Position numbers and translations under genes: made by a program. Below the pieces are notes generated by a model that saw nothing but the letters and a program-made list of their open reading frames with translations, made no database searches and was not told the DNA's origin. Below are positions 1 to 7,624 of a stretch of DNA of 7,624 bases, one piece after another (position 1 is the stretch's first letter; the number at the start of each line of letters is the position of its first letter). Source of the stretch: an uncultured Pelagibacteraceae bacterium (GTDB lineage: Bacteria > Pseudomonadota > Alphaproteobacteria > Pelagibacterales > Pelagibacteraceae); NCBI GenBank assembly GCA_902633535.1, contig CACPGM010000023.1, forward strand, positions 1-7,624, written 5' to 3'.

Positions 1-1426
1 TGCAAGTATACTGGCCCTCTTGTCAATGAAAGTTTTTGTAAGCTCTTCATGAAGTCGATCTGAAAGTTTATCTTCTAATAATTTTGTTTTTTCTATCCAA
101 TAATCCTGATTTTCAATCCAATTGTTTTTATTTGAAACATATGACCAAGTTCTTACATTTGCAATTCTATTTGATATAGAATCGACATTTCCCTCTAATT
201 TGTCTAGTTTCATTAGCTGTAATCGCATATATTCGCTAGTAATTTTACCTTTATCACTACTTAGAAACTTAAATACATTTTCAATTACATTGTAATGATT
301 TCCATAAGTTTTTTTAACAAAATCTGGAATTTGACAACATTCCCACAGCAAATTGAGTGTTTGACTATCAAAATTTACATTTTCAAAATTTTTATCTCTT
401 AGAAAATATTTCAAAGCTTTTTCATCTTCACATTCATGAATTTTTCTTAACCATTCTCTTTGAGGTCTTTCTTCTAAGGATTTTATTAAGGTTAACGAAT
501 TATTAAAATTAAGATTAGAGTTTCTCCAAAATAAAGTTCTAATATCTTCAAATTTGTGATTTTCCAATAAATCAACTTCCTCTGCATTTATTTCTTTACA
601 ATCACCAGTTATTCCAAAACTACCGTCATTAAGATACCTTCCAGCTCTTCCAGCAATTTGTCCTATCTCCGACAAGTTAAGTTTCCTAAGTTTTTTTCCA
701 TCAAATTTTTTTAAATTAGAAAAATAAACATTTTCTAAATCCATGTTAATACCCATACCAATTGCATCAGTCGCTACTAAAAAAATCTACATCTCCAGAT
801 TGGTATAATTCAACTTGTGCATTTCTAGTTTTAGGGCTCAATGATCCCATTACTATTGCAGCCCCTCCCTTTTGTCTTCTTATTAGTTCTGCAATCGCAT
901 AAACCTCTTCAGTAGAGAAAGCAATAATTGCAGTTTTCCTATTAATTCTGGATATCTTTTTATGACCTGCATATGTAAGTTTAGATAATCTATTTCTATT
1001 TATAAACTCAATGTCATCGTCTAAATTTGAAATGATTTTTTTAATAGAGCTTGATCCCATAAGCATTGTAAGCTTACTGCCTCTCATATTTAATAATCTA
1101 TCAGTAAAAATATGTCCTCTCTCATGGTCTGCACACATTTGAATTTCATCTACCCCAACAAATTCCAAAGATTTATCAATTGGCATTGATTCAACAGTAC
1201 ATAAAAAATATTTTGCATTTAGTGGGATAATTTTTTCTTCACCTGTAATTAAAGCAACTTTATCTGTTCCAATTTTGTTAATTACTTTATCATAAACTTC
1301 TCTCGCTAATAATCTTAGAGGAAATCCGATCATACCACTTTCAAAAGACAACATAGTTTCAATTGCTAAATGGGTTTTTCCAGTATTTGTTGGACCGAGA
1401 ACAGCAGTAATTTTGTTATTTGTCAT
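1..1426 (-). CDS. SUV3/MgpS-like DExH-box RNA helicase, 3'-partial and frameshifted
   Basis: This is an ATP-dependent superfamily 2 helicase of the family that includes mitochondrial SUV3, which acts in RNA unwinding and degradation. The first frame starts at ATG 1426. It carries Walker A GPTNTGKTH (residues 11-19), a DEIQ Walker B box (93-96) within VDEIQMCADHERGH, and the start of the second RecA domain, then hits TGA at 769-767. Dropping one base from the A7 run at 779-785 restores DVDFLVATDAIGMGINMD (motif V). The frame then stays open for 260 codons to base 1, with motif VI QIAGRAGR at about residues 256-263 and a long helical C-terminal part containing REWLRKIHECEDE. About 475 residues are visible, and the C-terminus lies off the left edge. 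The conserved sequence on both sides of the break means the split is recent or a sequencing/assembly error. No strong Shine-Dalgarno precedes the start. The family call is firm. The precise RNA role in this organism is not known from the sequence. Confidence 0.88.
779..785. other. A7 homopolymer at the helicase frameshift
   Basis: Seven A on the plus strand (T7 in the helicase sense). With seven, the helicase reads DVDFFSSD and stops. With six, it reads DVDFLVATDAIGMG, the expected helicase motif V. Homopolymer length error in a read or assembly is the simplest explanation. A true disruption or transcriptional slippage remains possible. Confidence 0.8.
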
Positions 1427-1645: not shown

Positions 1646-2653
1646 ATGTTAAGAAAATTATTTAAAACTTTCGCAATTGTTTTATTTTTAGCGAGTAGTT
1701 TTACGAGTAAAGTTATTTCGTCAGAACTAACTTTTTTTACCATAGGTACAGGCGGTACAGCCTATACTTACTACCCAGTAGGCGGAATGATTGCAAACGC
1801 AATCTCAAAACCTCCTGGATCAAGAGAATGTGGAAAAGGTGGAAGCTGTGGAGTAGATGGGTTAATAGCATCTGCTGTATCTTCAAGAGGATCGGTTGAT
1901 AACGTAAATGCTATTTTATCTGGATTGAGAAATTCTGGATTCGCACAGTCAGATGTGGCTTATTGGGCTTACACTGGAACAGGAACGATGGAAGGTAAAG
2001 AGCCCGCTAAAGGTCTAAGAACTATAGCAGCACTTTTTGAAGAACATATTCATTTAGTTACTCTTAAAAATAGTAAAATAAAATCAGTAAAAGATCTTAA
2101 GGGAAAAAGAGTCTCATTAGATGAACCTGGTTCTGGAACTTATGTTGATGCATTGTTAATCTTAGAAGCTAATGGTCTTAGTGAAAAAGATGTTAAAGCT
2201 GAAGCATTAAAAGGTAATGCAGCAACTGATGCACTTAGAAATAAAAAAGTTGATGCAATTTTTGTTGTTGCAGGCTTTCCAACAGGTGCAATTGTTGAAT
2301 TAGCATCTTCAGTTCCAATTAAACTTGTTCCAATTGATGGTGCTGGAGCAAAAAAATTAACCGACAAATATGGTTTTTTCTCTCAAAGTGATATTCCATC
2401 AGGGACTTATGAGAATGTAAAAACAACTAGTACTGTTGCAGTTGGTGCTCAATGGTTTACTTCAGCAAAAGAAGATGATCAGTTAATCTATAATATTACT
2501 AAAGCTCTTTGGAATAAAGAGTCTCGAAAATTAATGGATGTTGGTCATGCAAAAGGGAAAACTATAACACCAGAAACTGCACTATCTGGAGTTGGTGTAC
2601 CGTTACATCCAGGGGCAGAACGTTTCTATAAAGAAGTAGGCTTACTTAAGTAA
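1646..2653 (+). CDS. TAXI-family TRAP transporter solute-binding protein
   Basis: This is the periplasmic receptor that captures a solute and delivers it to the TRAP permease encoded next. The 335-residue length fits the family. An N-terminal signal peptide is evident: MLRK, a hydrophobic core to about residue 19, and probable cleavage near residues 25-27 (KVISS-E). The mature protein opens with the TAXI signature FTIGTGGTAYTYYPVGG (31-47). It also has RECGKGGSCG with Cys62 and Cys68, probably a disulfide in the periplasm, and KRVSLDEPGSGTYVDALLIL (154-173). The C-terminus has HPGAERFYKEVGL. The start is set by a strong AGGAG five bases upstream. The gene is followed after 44 bases by the fused permease, with an intervening hairpin. 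The substrate cannot be read from the sequence; characterised TAXI systems are few and are linked to organic acids such as glutamate or 2-oxoglutarate. Family assignment is firm. Confidence 0.93.
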   Translation: MLRKLFKTFAIVLFLASSFTSKVISSELTFFTIGTGGTAYTYYPVGGMIANAISKPPGSRECGKGGSCGVDGLIASAVSSRGSVDNVNAILSGLRNSGFAQSDVAYWAYTGTGTMEGKEPAKGLRTIAALFEEHIHLVTLKNSKIKSVKDLKGKRVSLDEPGSGTYVDALLILEANGLSEKDVKAEALKGNAATDALRNKKVDAIFVVAGFPTGAIVELASSVPIKLVPIDGAGAKKLTDKYGFFSQSDIPSGTYENVKTTSTVAVGAQWFTSAKEDDQLIYNITKALWNKESRKLMDVGHAKGKTITPETALSGVGVPLHPGAERFYKEVGLLK

Positions 2654-2665
2654 AAATATATAATT

Positions 2666-2697
2666 AAAACCCTGGATAAATTATCCAGGGTTTTTTT
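2666..2697 (+). terminator. Intrinsic terminator or attenuator between binding protein and permease
   Basis: The inverted repeat CCCTGGAT (2670-2677) and ATCCAGGG (2683-2690) is perfect over eight pairs. It can be extended inward by A-T pairs and outward by flanking A4/T4 pairs, with a short AT loop. It is followed by T7 (2691-2697), the standard layout of a Rho-independent terminator. The T tract ends one base before the permease ATG at 2698, and no other promoter fits between the two genes. It most likely acts as a partial terminator or 3'-end stabiliser, so that more binding-protein mRNA than permease mRNA is made. The only SD-like sequence for the permease (AGGG, 2687-2690) lies in the 3' arm of the stem. 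Confidence 0.82.
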
Positions 2698-4722
2698 ATG
2701 GAAAATTCAAAAGAAAATATTAATTTCGAGGACATAGAAAAAAAATATGATCCTCAATTGTCATTTAGGAAGTTAGGCCCACAGCTTGAAATTTTCATAG
2801 TTGCAATCTTGGTTTCTATGTCAGTTTATCATTTCTGGGCATCTGGATTTGGGCTAGTAAGAGAAGTTTTACATAGAGGAATTCATATTTCATATGTGAT
2901 TGGTCTGGTTTTTATTCTTTTTAGATGGAAAAAGGGAGAGAATAATTTTGAAAAAGGTACATTCGCTTTTTTAGATTTTCAGAATATTAATTTGTTAGAT
3001 TATATTTTTGCATTTTTGGCTGTGTCTTCAGCTTTATATCTACCATTATTACCTCCTGAGATACTGGCTCAAAGAGTTGGTAATCCAGAGACAATAGACG
3101 TATTTATGGGATCAATATTAATAATCTTAACTCTTGAGGCAGCAAGAAGATCTGTTGGTCCTACACTTCCTCTTATAAGTATTATTTTTATTTTATTTGC
3201 AATATTTGGACCACTTGCTCCAGGAGCTCTAAAACATGGTGGAACCTCTTGGTTAGGTTTTGTTAATCATATCTACATAACTAATCAGGGTGTTTATGGA
3301 ATAGCGGTTGGTGTAATGGCACAATACGTTTTTTTATTTATACTTTTTGGAGTTTTAGCTACACGAGTAGGTTTAGGAAAATTATTCATTGATTTATCAA
3401 TGTTGATTGCTGGAAAATTTTCTGGAGGTCCAGCTAAAGTTGCAATTTTTTCTTCAGCGTTTATGGGAACAATTTCTGGGTCATCTATTGCTAATACTGT
3501 TACAACTGGATCTTTAACAATACCGGCAATGAAAAAAGTAGGTTACCCCTCACATTTTTCTGGAGCTGTAGAAGCTGCATCTTCTACAGGGGGACAGATT
3601 ACTCCTCCAATTTTAGGTGCAGCAGCTTTTATTATGGTGGAATATCTCGAAGTTCCTTTAAGGGATATTTTGGCTGCCGCACTTATTCCAGCTTTATTAC
3701 ATTATTTTGGGATTTTTATCATGGTGCACCTGGAAGCAAAAAAACTTGGCTTAAGAGGTTTAAGACAAGATGAAATGCCAAATTTATTTTCAGTGATGAA
3801 AGATAATTGGTTATCACTTTTGCCTTTAATAATTTTAGTTTATTTTATATTAAGTGGACGAACTCCAGACTTTGCGGCAATTTATGGTATCATTTCATGT
3901 ATCACTATTGGTTTTATTAAACCAAGTAACAGACTTAATGTTAAAGATCTTTGGAATTGTTTAGCATCAGGAGCAAAGAATACTTTAGCAGTTGGTGCAG
4001 CAGCAGTTTGTGTTGGAATAATTGTTGGTGTTGTTACATTGACTGGAGTTGGTTTCAGATTAGGATTTGTAGTTATTCAGACAGCTGGAGATATAAGTAA
4101 TTTTTTTTCAAATATTTGGCCAATATCTTTTTTTTCATTTGAAGATTTAAGATTATTTTTCTCATTAGTTTTAATAGCAATTTCTTGTATTATAATGGGT
4201 GCAGGAATTCCTACAACTGCCACTTATATCATTCTTGTTGCTGTTGCGGCTCCAGCACTGGCACAACTCGGCATTGAACCTCTTGTTGCACATTTTTTTG
4301 TTTTTTATTATGGAGTTTTAGCTGATATCACTCCTCCAGTTGCATTAGCTGCATATGCAGCATCAGGAATCGCAAAATCAAATCCTTTTAAAACTGGAAA
4401 TACTGCATTTAGGCTAGGTATTGCAAAAGCGTTAGTACCGTTTGTATTTGTTTATTCGCCCTCTTTATTACTGGTAGCAGGTGAATTTCAAACGAACGAA
4501 TTAATTCTTACTCTGACAGGAACTTTAATAGGTATTGCATTGATTGGAATTGCATTTTCTGGTTACTGGTTACGACCACTTAAAAAATATGAGCAATTTA
4601 TAATTGGTAGTGGTTCTTTATTTTTTGTAGCACCAGGAACAGGCTCAATGATCATTGGATTATTGATAATTTTACCTATGTTTTTTTTACAATTTTATAA
4701 AAGACTAACCCCTGGGGCCTAA
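2698..4722 (+). CDS. TRAP transporter permease, fused DctQ/DctM (4TM/12TM fusion), TAXI type
   Basis: This is the inner-membrane secondary transporter that, with the TAXI binding protein upstream, imports an organic solute using an ion gradient. The 674 residues match the fused small-plus-large permease architecture. A cytoplasmic N-terminus of about 30 residues is followed by the small-subunit-like helices (about 31-50, 63-77, 103-118, 136-150) and then the large DctM-like region. DctM-family motifs are visible: GSSIANTVTTGSLTIPAMKK (261-280), EAASSTGGQITPPILGAAAF (292-311), GAGIPTTATYIILVAVAAPA (501-520), and GVLADITPPVALAAYAASGIA (539-559). Extra hydrophobic helices lie at about 602-622 and 634-666, after the core. 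ATG 2698 is the only sensible start, since the next Met is inside the first helix. It directly abuts the T tract of a hairpin and has only AGGG seven bases upstream. The last 18 bases overlap the end of the convergent thioesterase gene. Family call firm; substrate unknown. Confidence 0.93.
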   Translation: MENSKENINFEDIEKKYDPQLSFRKLGPQLEIFIVAILVSMSVYHFWASGFGLVREVLHRGIHISYVIGLVFILFRWKKGENNFEKGTFAFLDFQNINLLDYIFAFLAVSSALYLPLLPPEILAQRVGNPETIDVFMGSILIILTLEAARRSVGPTLPLISIIFILFAIFGPLAPGALKHGGTSWLGFVNHIYITNQGVYGIAVGVMAQYVFLFILFGVLATRVGLGKLFIDLSMLIAGKFSGGPAKVAIFSSAFMGTISGSSIANTVTTGSLTIPAMKKVGYPSHFSGAVEAASSTGGQITPPILGAAAFIMVEYLEVPLRDILAAALIPALLHYFGIFIMVHLEAKKLGLRGLRQDEMPNLFSVMKDNWLSLLPLIILVYFILSGRTPDFAAIYGIISCITIGFIKPSNRLNVKDLWNCLASGAKNTLAVGAAAVCVGIIVGVVTLTGVGFRLGFVVIQTAGDISNFFSNIWPISFFSFEDLRLFFSLVLIAISCIIMGAGIPTTATYIILVAVAAPALAQLGIEPLVAHFFVFYYGVLADITPPVALAAYAASGIAKSNPFKTGNTAFRLGIAKALVPFVFVYSPSLLLVAGEFQTNELILTLTGTLIGIALIGIAFSGYWLRPLKKYEQFIIGSGSLFFVAPGTGSMIIGLLIILPMFFLQFYKRLTPGA

Positions 4723-5130
4723 ATTTGAAGGCTTAACTTTTAAAATTTTCCAAACCCCAGAAGCCGAAGTTATAATTTTTTCATGACATTTTAATTCACA
4801 AAATAAAAATATTAGGGTTTTAGTTTTTTTTAAAATTTTTACGTTACCAATTATTTCATCACCTATTTTTGAAGCTCCTATAAATTTTAAGTCTAATGAA
4901 ATAGTTACACATGGAGCATTATCGGCTGACCTATGTGCTGCTGTCCCTGCTCCTGCATCTACCAAGGCTGATAAATAACCTCCATGGGTTATGCCAGCAG
5001 CATTTAAATGATTTTCATTAATAGTTGATTTAAATTCATATTCAGTTTCTGAAATATTTCTAAACATAACACCTCCGTTATGTTTCATAAAACCTGGCTT
5101 CAAACTGATTTGTTCAAATTTTTCAGACAT
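4705..5130 (-). CDS. PaaI-family hotdog-fold acyl-CoA thioesterase
   Basis: A predicted cytoplasmic thioesterase that hydrolyses acyl-CoA (in this family often aryl- or hydroxyaryl-CoA) to the free acid and CoA. The 141-residue length is standard for a single hotdog domain. The central-helix signature HLNAAGITHGGYLSALVDAG (41-60) holds the HGG motif (49-51) and Asp58, at the position of the catalytic acid in PaaI-type enzymes. The following strands PCVTISLDLKFIGASKIGD and GNVKILKKTKTLIFLFCEL are typical hotdog beta strands. The start at ATG 5130 is supported by the domain, although only a weak AAAAG precedes it. The stop lies within the last codons of the convergent TRAP permease, giving an 18-base tail-to-tail overlap. 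Upstream on the same strand, a 32-codon hydrophobic ORF ends six bases before the start, and tRNA-Arg lies beyond it, so the three may share a transcript. The true substrate is not predictable. Confidence 0.87.
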   Translation of the reverse strand: MSEKFEQISLKPGFMKHNGGVMFRNISETEYEFKSTINENHLNAAGITHGGYLSALVDAGAGTAAHRSADNAPCVTISLDLKFIGASKIGDEIIGNVKILKKTKTLIFLFCELKCHEKIITSASGVWKILKVKPSNLGPRG

Positions 5131-5136
5131 AATCTT

Positions 5137-5235
5137 TTATAATATAAAAGTTAAAATTAATAAAATTATTAAAATAATTATAAAAAAGTATATTACAGAT
5201 ATTTGAAGGGAAGCTTTAATTAGCCAGTTAAACAT
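5137..5235 (-). CDS. Possible micro-protein, 32 residues, single membrane segment
   Basis: ATG 5235 opens a 32-codon frame ending in TAA 5139-5137. It begins MFNWLIKASLQIS and continues as an unbroken run of Ile, Leu, Phe, Val and Thr to the C-terminus, which would form one transmembrane helix with a short Lys-containing N-terminal segment. It sits 12 bases after the tRNA-Arg CCA end and six bases before the thioesterase ATG, in the same frame and strand. That spacing looks like an operon. Against it, there is no clear Shine-Dalgarno (only AAAAAGAA about six bases upstream), and AT-rich DNA readily encodes Ile/Leu/Phe by chance. I do not recognise a family. Confidence 0.35.
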   Translation of the reverse strand: MFNWLIKASLQISVIYFFIIILIILLILTFIL

Positions 5236-5247
5236 ATCAATTCTTTT

Positions 5248-5324
5248 TGGTGCGCCTGCTAGGAGTCGAACCCAGAACCTCCTGGTCCGTAGCCAAGCGC
5301 TCTATCCAATTGAGCTACAGGCGC
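5248..5324 (-). tRNA. tRNA-Arg (anticodon ACG), CCA encoded
   Basis: The minus strand folds into a full cloverleaf of 77 bases including CCA. The acceptor is GCGCCTG paired with CAGGCGC, with discriminator A73. The D arm is GCTC/GAGC with loop AATTGGATA. The anticodon stem is CTTGG/CCAGG with loop CTACGGA, which places ACG at 5290-5288. The variable loop has five bases, and the T arm is CTGGG/CCTAG with TTCGACT and one G-T pair. ACG, normally with A34 edited to inosine, reads CGU, CGC and CGA. The terminal CCA is genomic (5250-5248). A TATAAT lies 16 bases upstream of the 5' end. Confidence 0.97.
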
Positions 5325-5340
5325 ATTTTAATTTTATTTA

Positions 5341-5346
5341 ATTATA
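5341..5346 (-). promoter_or_regulatory. Probable -10 element of the tRNA-Arg transcript
   Basis: A perfect TATAAT on the minus strand ends 16 bases before the mature tRNA 5' end, leaving a leader of about nine bases. No good -35 is seen: TTAAAA at 5371-5366 is spaced 19 bases away. The position suits a tRNA promoter that may also serve the downstream micro-ORF and thioesterase. Confidence 0.45.
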
Positions 5347-5394
5347 GTATATTATTTTTAGTGTATTTTAATGATAAGACAAATTTAAAATTTT

Positions 5395-6570
5395 ATGAGC
5401 AATAAATTAAAAGAAGTAGTTATTGTTAATGCGATCAGAACTCCCATTGGCTCTTATAAAGGTTCATTAAAAAATATGGAATCTCATAACCTTGGATCAA
5501 TAGTCATTAAGGAAGTTTTGAAAAGATCTAAATTTGATAGAGAGGAAATTGATGAAGTTATTATGGGCCAGGTACTGGCTGCTGGTGCAGGTCAAAACCC
5601 AGCAAGACAAGCTGCCATAAAAGCTGGCATACCAATTTCAAAACCAGCACATATAGTTAATCAAGTGTGTGGATCTGGACTTAGAGCAGTGATATCAGGT
5701 TATCAATCAATCAAATTAGGTGAGTCAATAAATATAATTTCCGGAGGTCAAGAAAATATGTCTATAGCTCCTCACTCAATTTTTTATCGGGATGAAAAAA
5801 AATTTTTAGAAGATAAATTACTAGATACAATGATAAACGATGGATTAATAGATGCATTCAATAATTATCATATGGGGGTAACAGCAGAAAATGTTGCAAA
5901 AAAATTTGACATATCGAGACAAGACCAAGATGAATTTGCATTAGATTCTCAAAAAAAAACAGAAACAGCTTATGCTAAAAATAAATTTGATGATGAGTTA
6001 ATAAAAATAAATCATGATGGAAATATCTTAGATAAAGATGAGCATCCAAGATCGGGCTTAGAATTAGCTAACTTAAAGAAATTAAAAACAGTCTTTAAAG
6101 AAAATGGAACAGTTACACCAGGAAATTCCTCAGGAATAAATGATGGAGCTGCAGCTTTATTGTTAACCTCGTTAGAAGAAGCAAAAAGAAAATCCATTAA
6201 GCCATTGGTAAAAATAGTGTCTTGGGCTTCAGTTGGAATAGATCCAGCTTTAATGGGATTGGGACCTATAGAAGCTGTTCGCAAAGCAATCAAAAAGGCA
6301 AAATGGAACTTAAACGAAGTTGATTTATTTGAAATTAATGAGGCCTTTGCTGCCCAAAGTATTGCAGTAATACGTGAATTAGGTATCGATCAAAATAAAG
6401 TAAATGTAAATGGTGGTGCTATTGCCCTTGGTCATCCAATTGGAGCTTCAGGAGCAAGAATTTTAGTTACTTTGATACATGAGATGAAAAGACAAAATAA
6501 GAATAAGGGTTGTGCAACACTTTGTATAGGTGGTGGAATGGGTATAGCTTTATGTGTTCAGAAAATTTAG
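5395..6570 (+). CDS. Acetyl-CoA C-acetyltransferase (thiolase II, AtoB/PhaA-like)
   Basis: Catalyses reversible condensation of two acetyl-CoA to acetoacetyl-CoA and CoA, in the cytoplasm. The 391-residue length is that of biosynthetic thiolases. All catalytic elements are present: acyl-accepting Cys92 in VNQVCGSGLRAV, NEAF (315-318), His347 in GGAIALGHPIGASGAR, and the second active-site Cys377 in CIGGGMGIA. The MGLGP motif lies at 287-291. The YHMGVTAENVAKKFDISRQD segment (158-177) is typical of acetoacetyl-CoA thiolases. The start at ATG 5395 gives the normal N-terminus (KEVVIVNAIRTPIGSYKGSL), but has no Shine-Dalgarno, only AT-rich sequence. No polyhydroxybutyrate or ketone-body genes adjoin it, so whether it works in synthesis or in breakdown of acetoacetyl-CoA is open. 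It is divergent from tRNA-Arg. Its stop overlaps by four bases the end of a small minus-strand ORF. Confidence 0.94.
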   Translation: MSNKLKEVVIVNAIRTPIGSYKGSLKNMESHNLGSIVIKEVLKRSKFDREEIDEVIMGQVLAAGAGQNPARQAAIKAGIPISKPAHIVNQVCGSGLRAVISGYQSIKLGESINIISGGQENMSIAPHSIFYRDEKKFLEDKLLDTMINDGLIDAFNNYHMGVTAENVAKKFDISRQDQDEFALDSQKKTETAYAKNKFDDELIKINHDGNILDKDEHPRSGLELANLKKLKTVFKENGTVTPGNSSGINDGAAALLLTSLEEAKRKSIKPLVKIVSWASVGIDPALMGLGPIEAVRKAIKKAKWNLNEVDLFEINEAFAAQSIAVIRELGIDQNKVNVNGGAIALGHPIGASGARILVTLIHEMKRQNKNKGCATLCIGGGMGIALCVQKI

Positions 6571-6683: not shown

Positions 6684-6779
6684 TTTTGAAGCATGCACTT
6701 AAAGAGTGTCAAAAAATTGGACAGAATGTGTTAGAATTTGCAATTAAGTAAATTTTTATAGTGTATAAGACTTAAAATA

Positions 6780-7624
6780 ATGACAGAAAAATTATTAGTT
6801 CCTGACATTGGTGATTTTGAAAATGTAGAAGTAATTGAGCTGTTAGTTAAAGAAGGACAAGAAATTAAAAAGGATGATCCAGTTGTAACAATTGAAAGTG
6901 ATAAATCTAGTCTTGAAATACCCTCAACTATCTCTGGTAAAATTCAATCTATAAAAGTAAAGGTTGGAGATAAAGTTTCTAAGGGAGATTTAATTCTTGA
7001 TATATTGAATTCCGATCAAACATCCTCTGCACCTAAAGTTATACCAAAAGATACTGAAAATTTGATAAAGGAAGCAGAAAATGCATTAAAAAAAGATCAA
7101 GAACAAAAACATCCAATTAAAAAAAATGAAAAATCTACAATCCAAGTTGTCAAAGATGGTGATTTAGATCCATTAGAAACTAATGAATGGCTTGAATCTT
7201 TGTCAGCAGTAATCGAAAAAGATGGCAATCAAAGAGCTCATTTTTTAATTAAAGAATTAATTAATAAAGCTTATATGGAAGGTGCTAATATTCCTTATAC
7301 TCAAAACACTCCTTATATAAATACAATTCCAGTCGGTGAAGAAAAAAAATCTAATGGAGATCAAAATATAGAGAGACGAATTAGGTCATTAATTAGATGG
7401 AATGCGGCAGCGATGGTCGTAAGAGCTAATAAAAAGTTTCCTGAACTTGGGGGACATATTGGAACATTTGCTTCTGCGGCAACATTATATGATGTTGGAA
7501 TGAATCATTTTTGGAGAGCAAAGAATAATAAATTCGGAGGAGATTTAGTCTATTTTCAAGGACATAGTGCACCTGGAATGTATGCAAGAGCATTTCTTGA
7601 AGGGAGACTTAACGAAAAACAACT
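6780..7624 (+). CDS. aceE: Lipoyl domain fused to pyruvate dehydrogenase E1 (AceE, homodimeric type), 3'-partial
   Basis: E1 decarboxylates pyruvate with thiamine diphosphate and reductively acetylates a lipoyl group, feeding acetyl-CoA synthesis by the PDH complex. The visible 281 codons are in one frame with no stop. Residues 3-77 form a complete lipoyl domain (LLVPDIGDFENVEVIELLV; lipoyl-lysine Lys42 in ESDKSSLEIP; GDKVSKGDLILDI). Residues 78-126 are a Lys/Glu/Asp-rich linker. From about 127 the AceE N-terminus begins: DGDLDPLETNEWLESL, then INTIPV, ERRIRSLIRWNAAAMVVRAN, GGHIGTF with His226 and VYFQGHSAPGMYARAFLEGR with His262. Those histidines are 36 residues apart, the spacing of His106 and His142, the cofactor-site histidines of E. 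coli AceE. Normally the lipoyl domain lies at the start of E2 (AceF), and AceE begins directly with the DPxET segment. Start ATG 6780 is supported by the lipoyl domain, though the Shine-Dalgarno is weak. The rest lies beyond the right edge, where an E2 gene would be expected. Confidence 0.9.
   Translation, partial: MTEKLLVPDIGDFENVEVIELLVKEGQEIKKDDPVVTIESDKSSLEIPSTISGKIQSIKVKVGDKVSKGDLILDILNSDQTSSAPKVIPKDTENLIKEAENALKKDQEQKHPIKKNEKSTIQVVKDGDLDPLETNEWLESLSAVIEKDGNQRAHFLIKELINKAYMEGANIPYTQNTPYINTIPVGEEKKSNGDQNIERRIRSLIRWNAAAMVVRANKKFPELGGHIGTFASAATLYDVGMNHFWRAKNNKFGGDLVYFQGHSAPGMYARAFLEGRLNEKQ

What the first reader, a model, noticed from the sequence alone, without database searches (positions are those of the whole stretch)
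6780..7624. N-terminal lipoyl domain fused in frame to homodimeric pyruvate dehydrogenase E1 (AceE)
Seen: one uninterrupted frame carries a complete lipoyl domain with the DKSS lipoylation lysine (Lys42), a charged linker of about 50 residues, and an unmistakable AceE N-terminus. Known: in E. coli-type PDH the lipoyl domains are on E2 (AceF) and AceE has none. The lipoyl-bearing E1 that I know of is the heteromeric E1 beta subunit of some alphaproteobacteria such as Zymomonas and Rhizobium. Inference: the enzyme would carry its own swinging arm, so E1 could be acetylated in cis and pass the acetyl group to an E2 with fewer or no lipoyl domains. This may be a convergent solution in a streamlined genome. 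Novelty is my judgement without a database search.
Basis: partly seen in the sequence, partly recalled or inferred. Interest (0 to 1): 0.78.

Follow-up and report, generated by a model that had tools for sequence, protein, structure and literature searches.

The report
SAR11 pyruvate dehydrogenase E1 carries swinging arm
In SAR11, abundant marine bacteria, the first enzyme of pyruvate dehydrogenase carries the swinging lipoyl arm that normally sits on the second enzyme, and in several SAR11 lineages the second enzyme has lost its own arm, so the first enzyme's arm appears to be the only one left.

Summary
Confirmed. One open frame (6780-7622, cut by the contig end) encodes a complete lipoyl domain (LD, K42), a linker and the N-terminus of homodimeric E1 (AceE). 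It is no artefact: 80 of 80 kept SAR11 loci match end to end. Of 134 Pelagibacterales genomes with this E1, the LD is in frame in 132; one is cut by a contig end, one has a frame break in the linker. No LD-AceE was seen outside SAR11 in the Pseudomonadota samples listed.

Main new result: in 24 of these 134 genomes E2 is only peripheral subunit-binding domain plus catalytic core, without an LD, and no spare lipoyl protein was found. The E1 tree needs six changes of the E2 LD, five forced by well-supported branches. The E1 LD keeps its lysine in 139 of 139 copies and is as constrained as the E2 LD (dN/dS 0.098 versus 0.110).

Best reading: E1 carries a working acetyl arm, apparently the only one in several lineages. 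LD relocation is known elsewhere (Zymomonas E1-beta; E3 of Neisseria and Mycoplasma hyopneumoniae), so this is a new variant of a known kind. Lipoylation and acetylation are untested.

The parts
6780..7622 (+). LD-AceE: homodimeric pyruvate dehydrogenase E1 with an N-terminal lipoyl domain, 3' end beyond the contig
   Evidence: one open frame, ATG start, no stop; PF00364 and TIGR00759; full-length relatives of about 1009 aa
6789..7010 (+). lipoyl domain, aa 4-77
   Evidence: PF00364 aa 5-75, E 2e-19; all-beta with pLDDT mostly 78-88 in the model of the relative L001
6903..6905 (+). predicted lipoylation lysine K42 in ESDKSS
   Evidence: K in 139 of 139 E1-borne LD copies in the loci held, some near-identical; modification itself not tested
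7011..7157 (+). linker between lipoyl domain and E1, aa 78-126
   Evidence: low pLDDT except helix 90-104 in the L001 model; dN/dS 0.33, fastest part of E1
7158..7622 (+). AceE N-terminus, aa 127-281, including the segment homologous to the E2-docking N-terminal region of E. coli E1
   Evidence: aligned to E. coli E1 residues 6-161; TIGR00759; docking role of the E. coli region from PMC6270654, passages

Best explanation
A lipoyl domain of E2 (AceF) type was copied onto the N-terminus of AceE in the ancestor of SAR11. The fused E1 forms the usual thiamine-diphosphate-dependent dimer. Its N-terminal segment, which in E. coli docks on the peripheral subunit-binding domain (PSBD) of E2, now also tethers a lipoyl arm through a linker of about 50 residues. 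The lysine (K42 in the window) is lipoylated by the cell's lipoate machinery; E1 transfers the acetyl group from pyruvate to this arm, which swings to the E2 active site to make acetyl-CoA and to E3 to be reoxidised. Because E1 carries an arm, the E2 arm became dispensable and was lost several times, leaving E2 as PSBD plus core. Shown here: the fusion, its conservation, purifying selection on the LD, repeated absence of the E2 LD, and no spare lipoyl protein in those genomes. Inferred: lipoylation, acetylation (in cis or across the dimer), delivery to E2 and E3, and the direction of change (loss rather than regain).
For: Fusion in 80 of 80 kept SAR11 loci and in frame in 132 of 134 E1-bearing Pelagibacterales genomes (hand count of its rows). 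E2 without LD in 24 of the same 134, each junction read directly: E1-E2 gap -65 to 6 nt, E2 of 272-326 aa, no LD with hmmsearch --max at E<=1. Pfam on one representative of each of the six groups: PSBD and catalytic domain only. PF00364 over these 24 genomes gives E1, a ~440-aa frame and a ~140-aa frame in most; read in G431, these are E2o beside lpd and a biotin carrier. Tree of E1: 6 changes of E2-LD state, 5 forced by starred branches; one clade rejected, p-AU 9.6e-51. K in 139 of 139 E1-borne LDs. dN/dS: E1 LD 0.098, E2 LD 0.110, linker 0.326, E1 catalytic part 0.030; E1 LD 0.083 where E2 has none. E1 LD is 60% identical to SAR11 E2 LD but 48% to E2 LD of unfused alphaproteobacteria. Residues aligned to E. 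coli H106, H142, Y177, E235, H407, E571 and H640 are invariant in 38 rows (catalytic roles recalled). LipA in 13 of 13 and a single Lpd over cut-off in 12 of 13 genomes tried.
Against: No biochemical evidence. Most genomes (110 of 134) keep an LD on E2, so for the window's own group the E1 LD could be a second arm. Parsimony cannot tell loss from gain. The AU group was named after seeing the tree. The LD tree is poorly resolved (78 columns), so the origin from E2 rests on identities. G463 and G480 lack a visible E2o, so their assemblies are incomplete. One genome (G472) has a frame break between LD and E1.
Confidence: 0.84

Rival explanations
1. The E1 lipoyl domain is an auxiliary arm or docking aid; the E2 lipoyl domain does the catalytic work wherever it exists.
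For: 110 of 134 genomes keep an E2 LD, which is under similar constraint (dN/dS 0.110).
Against: 24 of 134 have no E2 LD and no spare lipoyl protein was seen. E1 LDs keep the lysine in 139 of 139 copies, whereas four inner E2 LDs have lost theirs.
Confidence: 0.1
2. In lineages whose E2 lacks an LD, the lipoyl domain of the 2-oxoglutarate dehydrogenase E2 (E2o) serves PDH in trans, and the E1 LD is not the acetyl carrier.
For: E2o with an LD is present (G431) and one Lpd over cut-off is seen per genome, next to E2o. Borrowing of LDs between complexes is known in Corynebacterium glutamicum (PMC7568260 and PMC8146983, passages).
Against: Does not explain why the LD on E1 is kept, under purifying selection (0.083, 9 pairs), in the same genomes.
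Confidence: 0.04
3. The E1 LD descends from the N-terminal LD of the alphaproteobacterial heteromeric E1-beta (PdhB) and was transferred to AceE when SAR11 changed E1 type.
For: E1-beta LDs exist in alphaproteobacteria (Zymomonas; PMC7873978, passages).
Against: E1 LD is 60% identical to SAR11 E2p LD and 68% within L001's genome. Frames of 449-485 aa that may be PdhB or E2 match at 33-36% (identity of these frames not tested).
Confidence: 0.04
4. Assembly or frame artefact joining two genes.
For: The window gene is cut by the contig end; one genome (G472) has a frame break in the linker.
Against: 80 of 80 kept loci and 132 of 134 genomes are in frame.
Confidence: 0.01

Closest known systems
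Homodimeric pyruvate dehydrogenase E1 (AceE, TIGR00759; E. coli type)
   Same: whole catalytic part: L001 E1 scores 1424.6 bits, cut-off 859.9, and aligns over E. coli 6-883
   Different: about 125 extra N-terminal residues with a lipoyl domain; 40 of 40 fetched non-SAR11 AceE stretches have no LD in the E1 frame (L201 and L225 overlap)
Heterotetrameric E1 with an LD on E1-beta (Zymomonas mobilis)
   Same: lipoyl domain on E1 (reference title seen in PMC7873978; that paper's own text says subunit alpha)
   Different: other E1 type (alpha2beta2, not AceE); an E2 without LD in such bacteria was not looked for here
Pyruvate dehydrogenase with the LD on E3 (Mycoplasma hyopneumoniae; also Neisseria and Alcaligenes eutrophus)
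   Same: LD moved to a peripheral enzyme; for M. hyopneumoniae the paper puts the LD on E3 (PMC7873978, passages). NCBIfam also holds a 308-position E2 family (NF008815) that the LD-less SAR11 E2 matches over 2-299, below cut-off
   Different: arm on E3 rather than E1
Actinobacterial OdhA / AceF hybrid complex
   Same: an acyltransferase domain without its own LD uses an arm on another protein (PMC7568260, PMC8146983, passages)
   Different: arm borrowed from the E2 of the other complex, not from E1

Membership tests
Homodimeric pyruvate dehydrogenase E1 (AceE) | TIGR00759 equivalog score over cut-off | tested here: met
   L001 1424.6 and L134 1438.5 bits, cut-off 859.9, with lower scores and below cut-off for the exception model TIGR03186. 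The window's own fragment scores 223.6 because it is cut.
Homodimeric pyruvate dehydrogenase E1 (AceE) | E. coli active-site residues kept | tested here: met
   positions aligned to E. coli H106, H142, Y177, E235, H407, E571, H640 are invariant in 38 rows, 33 of them SAR11; roles recalled. In the window only those up to residue 281 can be seen.
Homodimeric pyruvate dehydrogenase E1 (AceE) | pyruvate decarboxylation and reductive acetylation | not testable with these tools
   needs enzyme assay
Lipoyl domain (PF00364, lipoyl type) | profile match with lysine at the hairpin (DK motif) | tested here: met
   window 69.6 bits, cut-off 22.1; K42 in ESDKSS; 139 of 139 E1-borne copies keep K
Lipoyl domain (PF00364, lipoyl type) | lysine carries lipoate | not testable with these tools
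   needs mass spectrometry; LipA found in 13 of 13 genomes tried
[quoted passage not shown]
   for the E2 of 24 of 134 genomes: PSBD and catalytic domain only (Pfam on six representatives). Met for L001's E2.
Heteromeric E1-beta with LD (PdhB, NF008854) | PdhB profile match over cut-off | tested here: not met
   window fragment matches only through its lipoyl part, 24 bits, cut-off 454

The most novel reading that the evidence does not exclude
At least five, probably six, SAR11 lineages run pyruvate dehydrogenase with an inverted layout: the only lipoyl swinging arm is on E1, which loads it itself, and E2 is reduced to a docking and transfer core. SAR11 as a whole is a graded series from arms on both proteins to E1 only.
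Probability: 0.77. Interest if true: 0.82.

Novelty: new variant of a known kind. Interest (0 to 1): 0.74.

Why it matters
Textbook accounts place the swinging arm of pyruvate dehydrogenase on E2. SAR11 bacteria offer a natural series, in one order, from arms on both enzymes to arm on E1 only, with several separate changes. That makes an old question testable by comparison and reconstitution: does active-site coupling need the arm on the core, or only tethered anywhere in the complex? With the arm on E1, the number of arms should follow E1 occupancy, a simple prediction. It concerns central carbon metabolism of very abundant ocean bacteria (abundance statement in PMC10030771, abstract seen in the listing).

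Tried and rejected
Artefact: rejected by relatives. Replacement by heteromeric PdhB: PdhB-like matches in 13 of 197 Pelagibacterales genomes, none over cut-off. Hidden LD upstream of the short E2: E1 and E2 abut or overlap in the 24 genomes. True E1-E2 fusion: one search listed open frames of 1303-1343 aa for some short E2s; reading the junctions showed a stop codon between the genes. A separate lipoyl protein: extra PF00364 matches in G433 and G343 lie in a membrane-fusion-like protein, and the third in G480 is a 72-aa carrier with a biotin-type MKT motif (motif reading recalled). A lineage-wide longer linker in genomes with LD-less E2: 57-68 in four of six groups, but 50 and 52 in the other two, against 43-64 (median 52, n=94) where E2 has an LD, so not a rule. 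Asn for Asp in the E2 DHRxxDG motif of one group (7 loci) is not taken as loss of function, because PDB titles name Asn614 in the Azotobacter enzyme. LD tree to date the duplication: too few columns. Independent LD-AceE elsewhere: long frames in Pseudomonadota checked, no LD; other phyla not searched by genome. Foldseek's top 50 for the E1 model are E1 and transketolase chains only; the LD did not appear as a separate match there.

Rows dropped before counts: L004, L040, L044, L064, L065, L024, L135, L073, L012, L006, L014, L033, L028 were left out of the E1 tree, and rows over 96.5% identical with equal LD counts were merged first (139 to 74). L024's E2 is split by a frame break and was not counted as LD-less. 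L081, L082 and L086 were left out of the lysine count as repeats; the E2 lysine count (113 of 117) still contains five outgroup loci twice. In one search pairs mixing the two E2 states were skipped. G427 matches at E 3.9e-240 but its row was not listed and it has no E2 match, so it is outside the 134.

Full report
What is in the window. The frame 6780-7622 (+) runs without a stop from ATG to the contig end. Residues 5-75 match Pfam PF00364 (E 2e-19), residues 127-281 the start of TIGR00759 aceE (E 4.2e-66) and residues 6-161 of E. coli AceE. The last in-frame stop upstream is at 6759, so the lipoyl domain is complete. G+C is 32%. No whole genome is held for the window. The closest loci are SAR11: L001 (Pelagibacterales SAG-MED19) at 91% and L114 at 91%.

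Is it real. A scan of genome contigs kept the best 80 of 476 relatives; all 80 match query residues 1-281 in one piece. Searching 197 genomes of the same order with the full L001 protein (1009 aa) gave 135 genomes with a match. In 134 of them the row is listed; in 132 the match begins at residue 1-8. G443 begins at residue 68 at a contig end, and G472 has the lipoyl domain as a separate 102-aa ORF next to a 931-aa E1. The remaining genome, G427, was not listed. Public annotation already names such proteins 'pyruvate dehydrogenase (acetyl-transferring), homodimeric type' in Candidatus Pelagibacter, and their precomputed Pfam strings include PF00364 (120 of 1902 hits listed). So the proteins are known as sequences, while the architecture is not remarked on in the papers I searched for.

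How far it spreads. In 289 genomes of the class, 8 had an AceE-strength match (E listed as 0): three of the fused type and five unfused. In 398 genomes of the phylum, 161 had a match at 1e-150; among the listed rows only G001 and G099 begin inside the lipoyl domain before residue 57 (the list was cut). I fetched 40 non-SAR11 AceE stretches, including long frames, and none has a lipoyl domain in the E1 frame; where E2 lies in the stretch, it has one to three. Other phyla were not searched by genome. One protein-database row of this type (P0040, a fragment) is labelled Nanopelagicales; I did not check whether that label is right.

The partner E2. In L001 the next gene, overlapping E1 by one base, is an E2 of 419 aa with one lipoyl domain. 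Searching the same 197 genomes with that E2 gave 159 genomes at 1e-50. 25 of these are genomes without AceE, and those listed match at 30-34%; the other 134 are exactly the E1-bearing genomes (hand count). In 110 the match begins at residue 1-7. In 24 it begins at residue 77-122. I fetched these 24 loci: E2 is 272-326 aa (272 at a contig edge), starts just before the PSBD, and abuts E1 (gap -65 to 6 nt). No LD was found with hmmsearch --max at E<=1. Pfam on one representative of each of the six groups (L134, L158, L160, L150, L062, L164) finds only E3_binding and 2-oxoacid_dh. Three named SAR11 loci among the 80 (L058, L059, L062) show the same.

Is another lipoyl protein available. PF00364 over the 24 genomes gave E1, a frame of about 440 aa and a frame of about 120-145 aa in 21 genomes or, for G433 and G343, these plus a weak fourth; G463 gave two matches, and G480 gave E1, a ~120-aa frame and a short frame. 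In G431 the 440-aa frame is E2o followed directly by lpd, and the 140-aa frame is a biotin carrier next to a biotin carboxylase-like gene. The weak fourth matches lie in a membrane-fusion-like protein, and the G480 short frame is a 72-aa biotin-type carrier. Names in this paragraph beyond one search are my reading of the sequences. One Lpd over cut-off is seen in 12 of 13 genomes tried, none in G480.

Repeated change. A maximum-likelihood tree of the E1 catalytic part (66 rows, 882 columns, quick method) puts the 61 SAR11 rows on one side of a branch (SH-aLRT 100). Presence or absence of the E2 LD needs six changes, five of them forced by starred branches. The groups are L160; L159 with L161-L168; L134, L136, L149 and L151-L156; L157 and L158; L150; and L147, L148, L058, L059 and L062 (loci not in the tree placed by near-identity). 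Holding the 16 rows together is rejected (p-AU 9.6e-51), though the group was named after the tree was seen. Since unfused relatives and the deepest SAR11 group have an E2 LD, loss is the simpler reading. The E1 LD shows no such pattern.

A graded series. The deepest SAR11 group carries more domains: E1 with two and E2 with one (L121, L123, L126, L128), one and two (L129, L130, L131), or two and two (L124). In all four of the inner E2 domains of this group the lipoyl lysine is replaced (E in three, N in one) and the sequence has drifted to 33% identity. These look like dead domains. With 139 of 139 lysines kept on E1, function appears to have shifted towards E1.

Selection and structure. In 42 separate pairs of related genomes dN/dS is 0.098 for the E1 LD, 0.326 for the linker, 0.030 for the E1 catalytic part and 0.110 for the E2 LD. 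In 9 pairs without E2 LD the E1 LD has 0.083. AlphaFold2 for L001 E1 shows an all-beta domain at 2-76, a low-confidence linker with one helix at 90-104, and E1 from 131 on (mean pLDDT 77.8); the best PDB matches are E. coli E1. The short E2 of L134 folds as PSBD plus core (mean pLDDT 81.6), best matching E2 catalytic domains.

How it should work. In E. coli the N-terminal region of E1 (residues 1-55) interacts mainly with the PSBD of E2 (PMC6270654, passages). In SAR11 the lipoyl domain is tethered just before the homologous segment, so the arm sits beside the PSBD, near where the E2 arm would start. The arm can be loaded by E1 and reach the E2 core and E3. The loading and delivery steps are inferred.

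Origin. Within SAR11 the E1 and E2 lipoyl domains are 60% identical on average (61% within a genome, 18 cases), against 48% for E1 LD to the E2 LD of unfused alphaproteobacteria and 47% to other Pseudomonadota. That favours a copy from E2 in the SAR11 stem. Heteromeric PdhB-like matches occur in 13 of 197 genomes of the order, none over cut-off.

What is known. PMC7873978 (passages) lists exceptions to the rule that lipoyl domains sit on E2: E3 of Alcaligenes eutrophus, Neisseria meningitidis and M. hyopneumoniae, and E1 of Zymomonas (its text says alpha; the cited title says E1-beta). C. glutamicum OdhA relies on the arm of AceF (PMC7568260, PMC8146983, passages). PMC10030771 (passages) describes aceEF in SAR11 and extra aceE copies in subclade IIIa without any mention of 'lipoyl'. 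My searches for SAR11 or Pelagibacter with lipoyl, and for AceE with N-terminal lipoyl, listed no paper whose title or abstract start describes this architecture; the library lacks most subscription journals and holds no bioRxiv.

Verdict. It is a new variant of a known kind (lipoyl domain relocation), first noted here for homodimeric E1 as far as these searches go.

Noticed in passing
window 1-1426 (-): Suv3-like helicase gene broken into two frames (219 aa and at least 252 aa) near 779-783, beside a run of T; relatives have one frame of 825-827 aa in the loci read in full. A sequencing error or a real frameshift; not decided.
   Followed up: partly
L122, L125, L127, L132 (G099, G384, G445, G421): Second, unfused AceE paralogue (52-54% identical, 886-891 aa) in some Pelagibacterales, with no E2 beside it; in L122 and L127 it lies next to genes that look like a TRAP transporter (by eye). 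In L127 it scores higher with TIGR03186 (1372.8, cut-off 1408.3 not reached) than with aceE (1339.9). It might use the LD of the main complex.
   Followed up: partly
L124, L129, L130, L131, inner E2 lipoyl domain: Kept lipoyl-like domain in E2 that has lost its lysine in 4 of 4 cases; why it is kept is unknown.
   Followed up: partly
62 of 197 Pelagibacterales genomes: No AceE match at 1e-20 and PdhB-like matches in only 13 of 197; how these make acetyl-CoA from pyruvate, if they do, was not looked into.
   Followed up: no
L136 (G472) 5487-5795 and 2729-5524 (-): Lipoyl domain and E1 in separate overlapping frames in a genome whose E2 has no LD; assembly error or a real split.
   Followed up: no
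L161-L167, E2: Asn replaces Asp in the E2 DHRxxDG motif in 7 loci of one LD-less-E2 group.
   Followed up: partly
window 1646-4722 (+) and 4705-5130 (-): TAXI-type TRAP transporter pair whose permease gene overlaps the end of a convergent hotdog-fold thioesterase gene by 18 bases.
   Followed up: no
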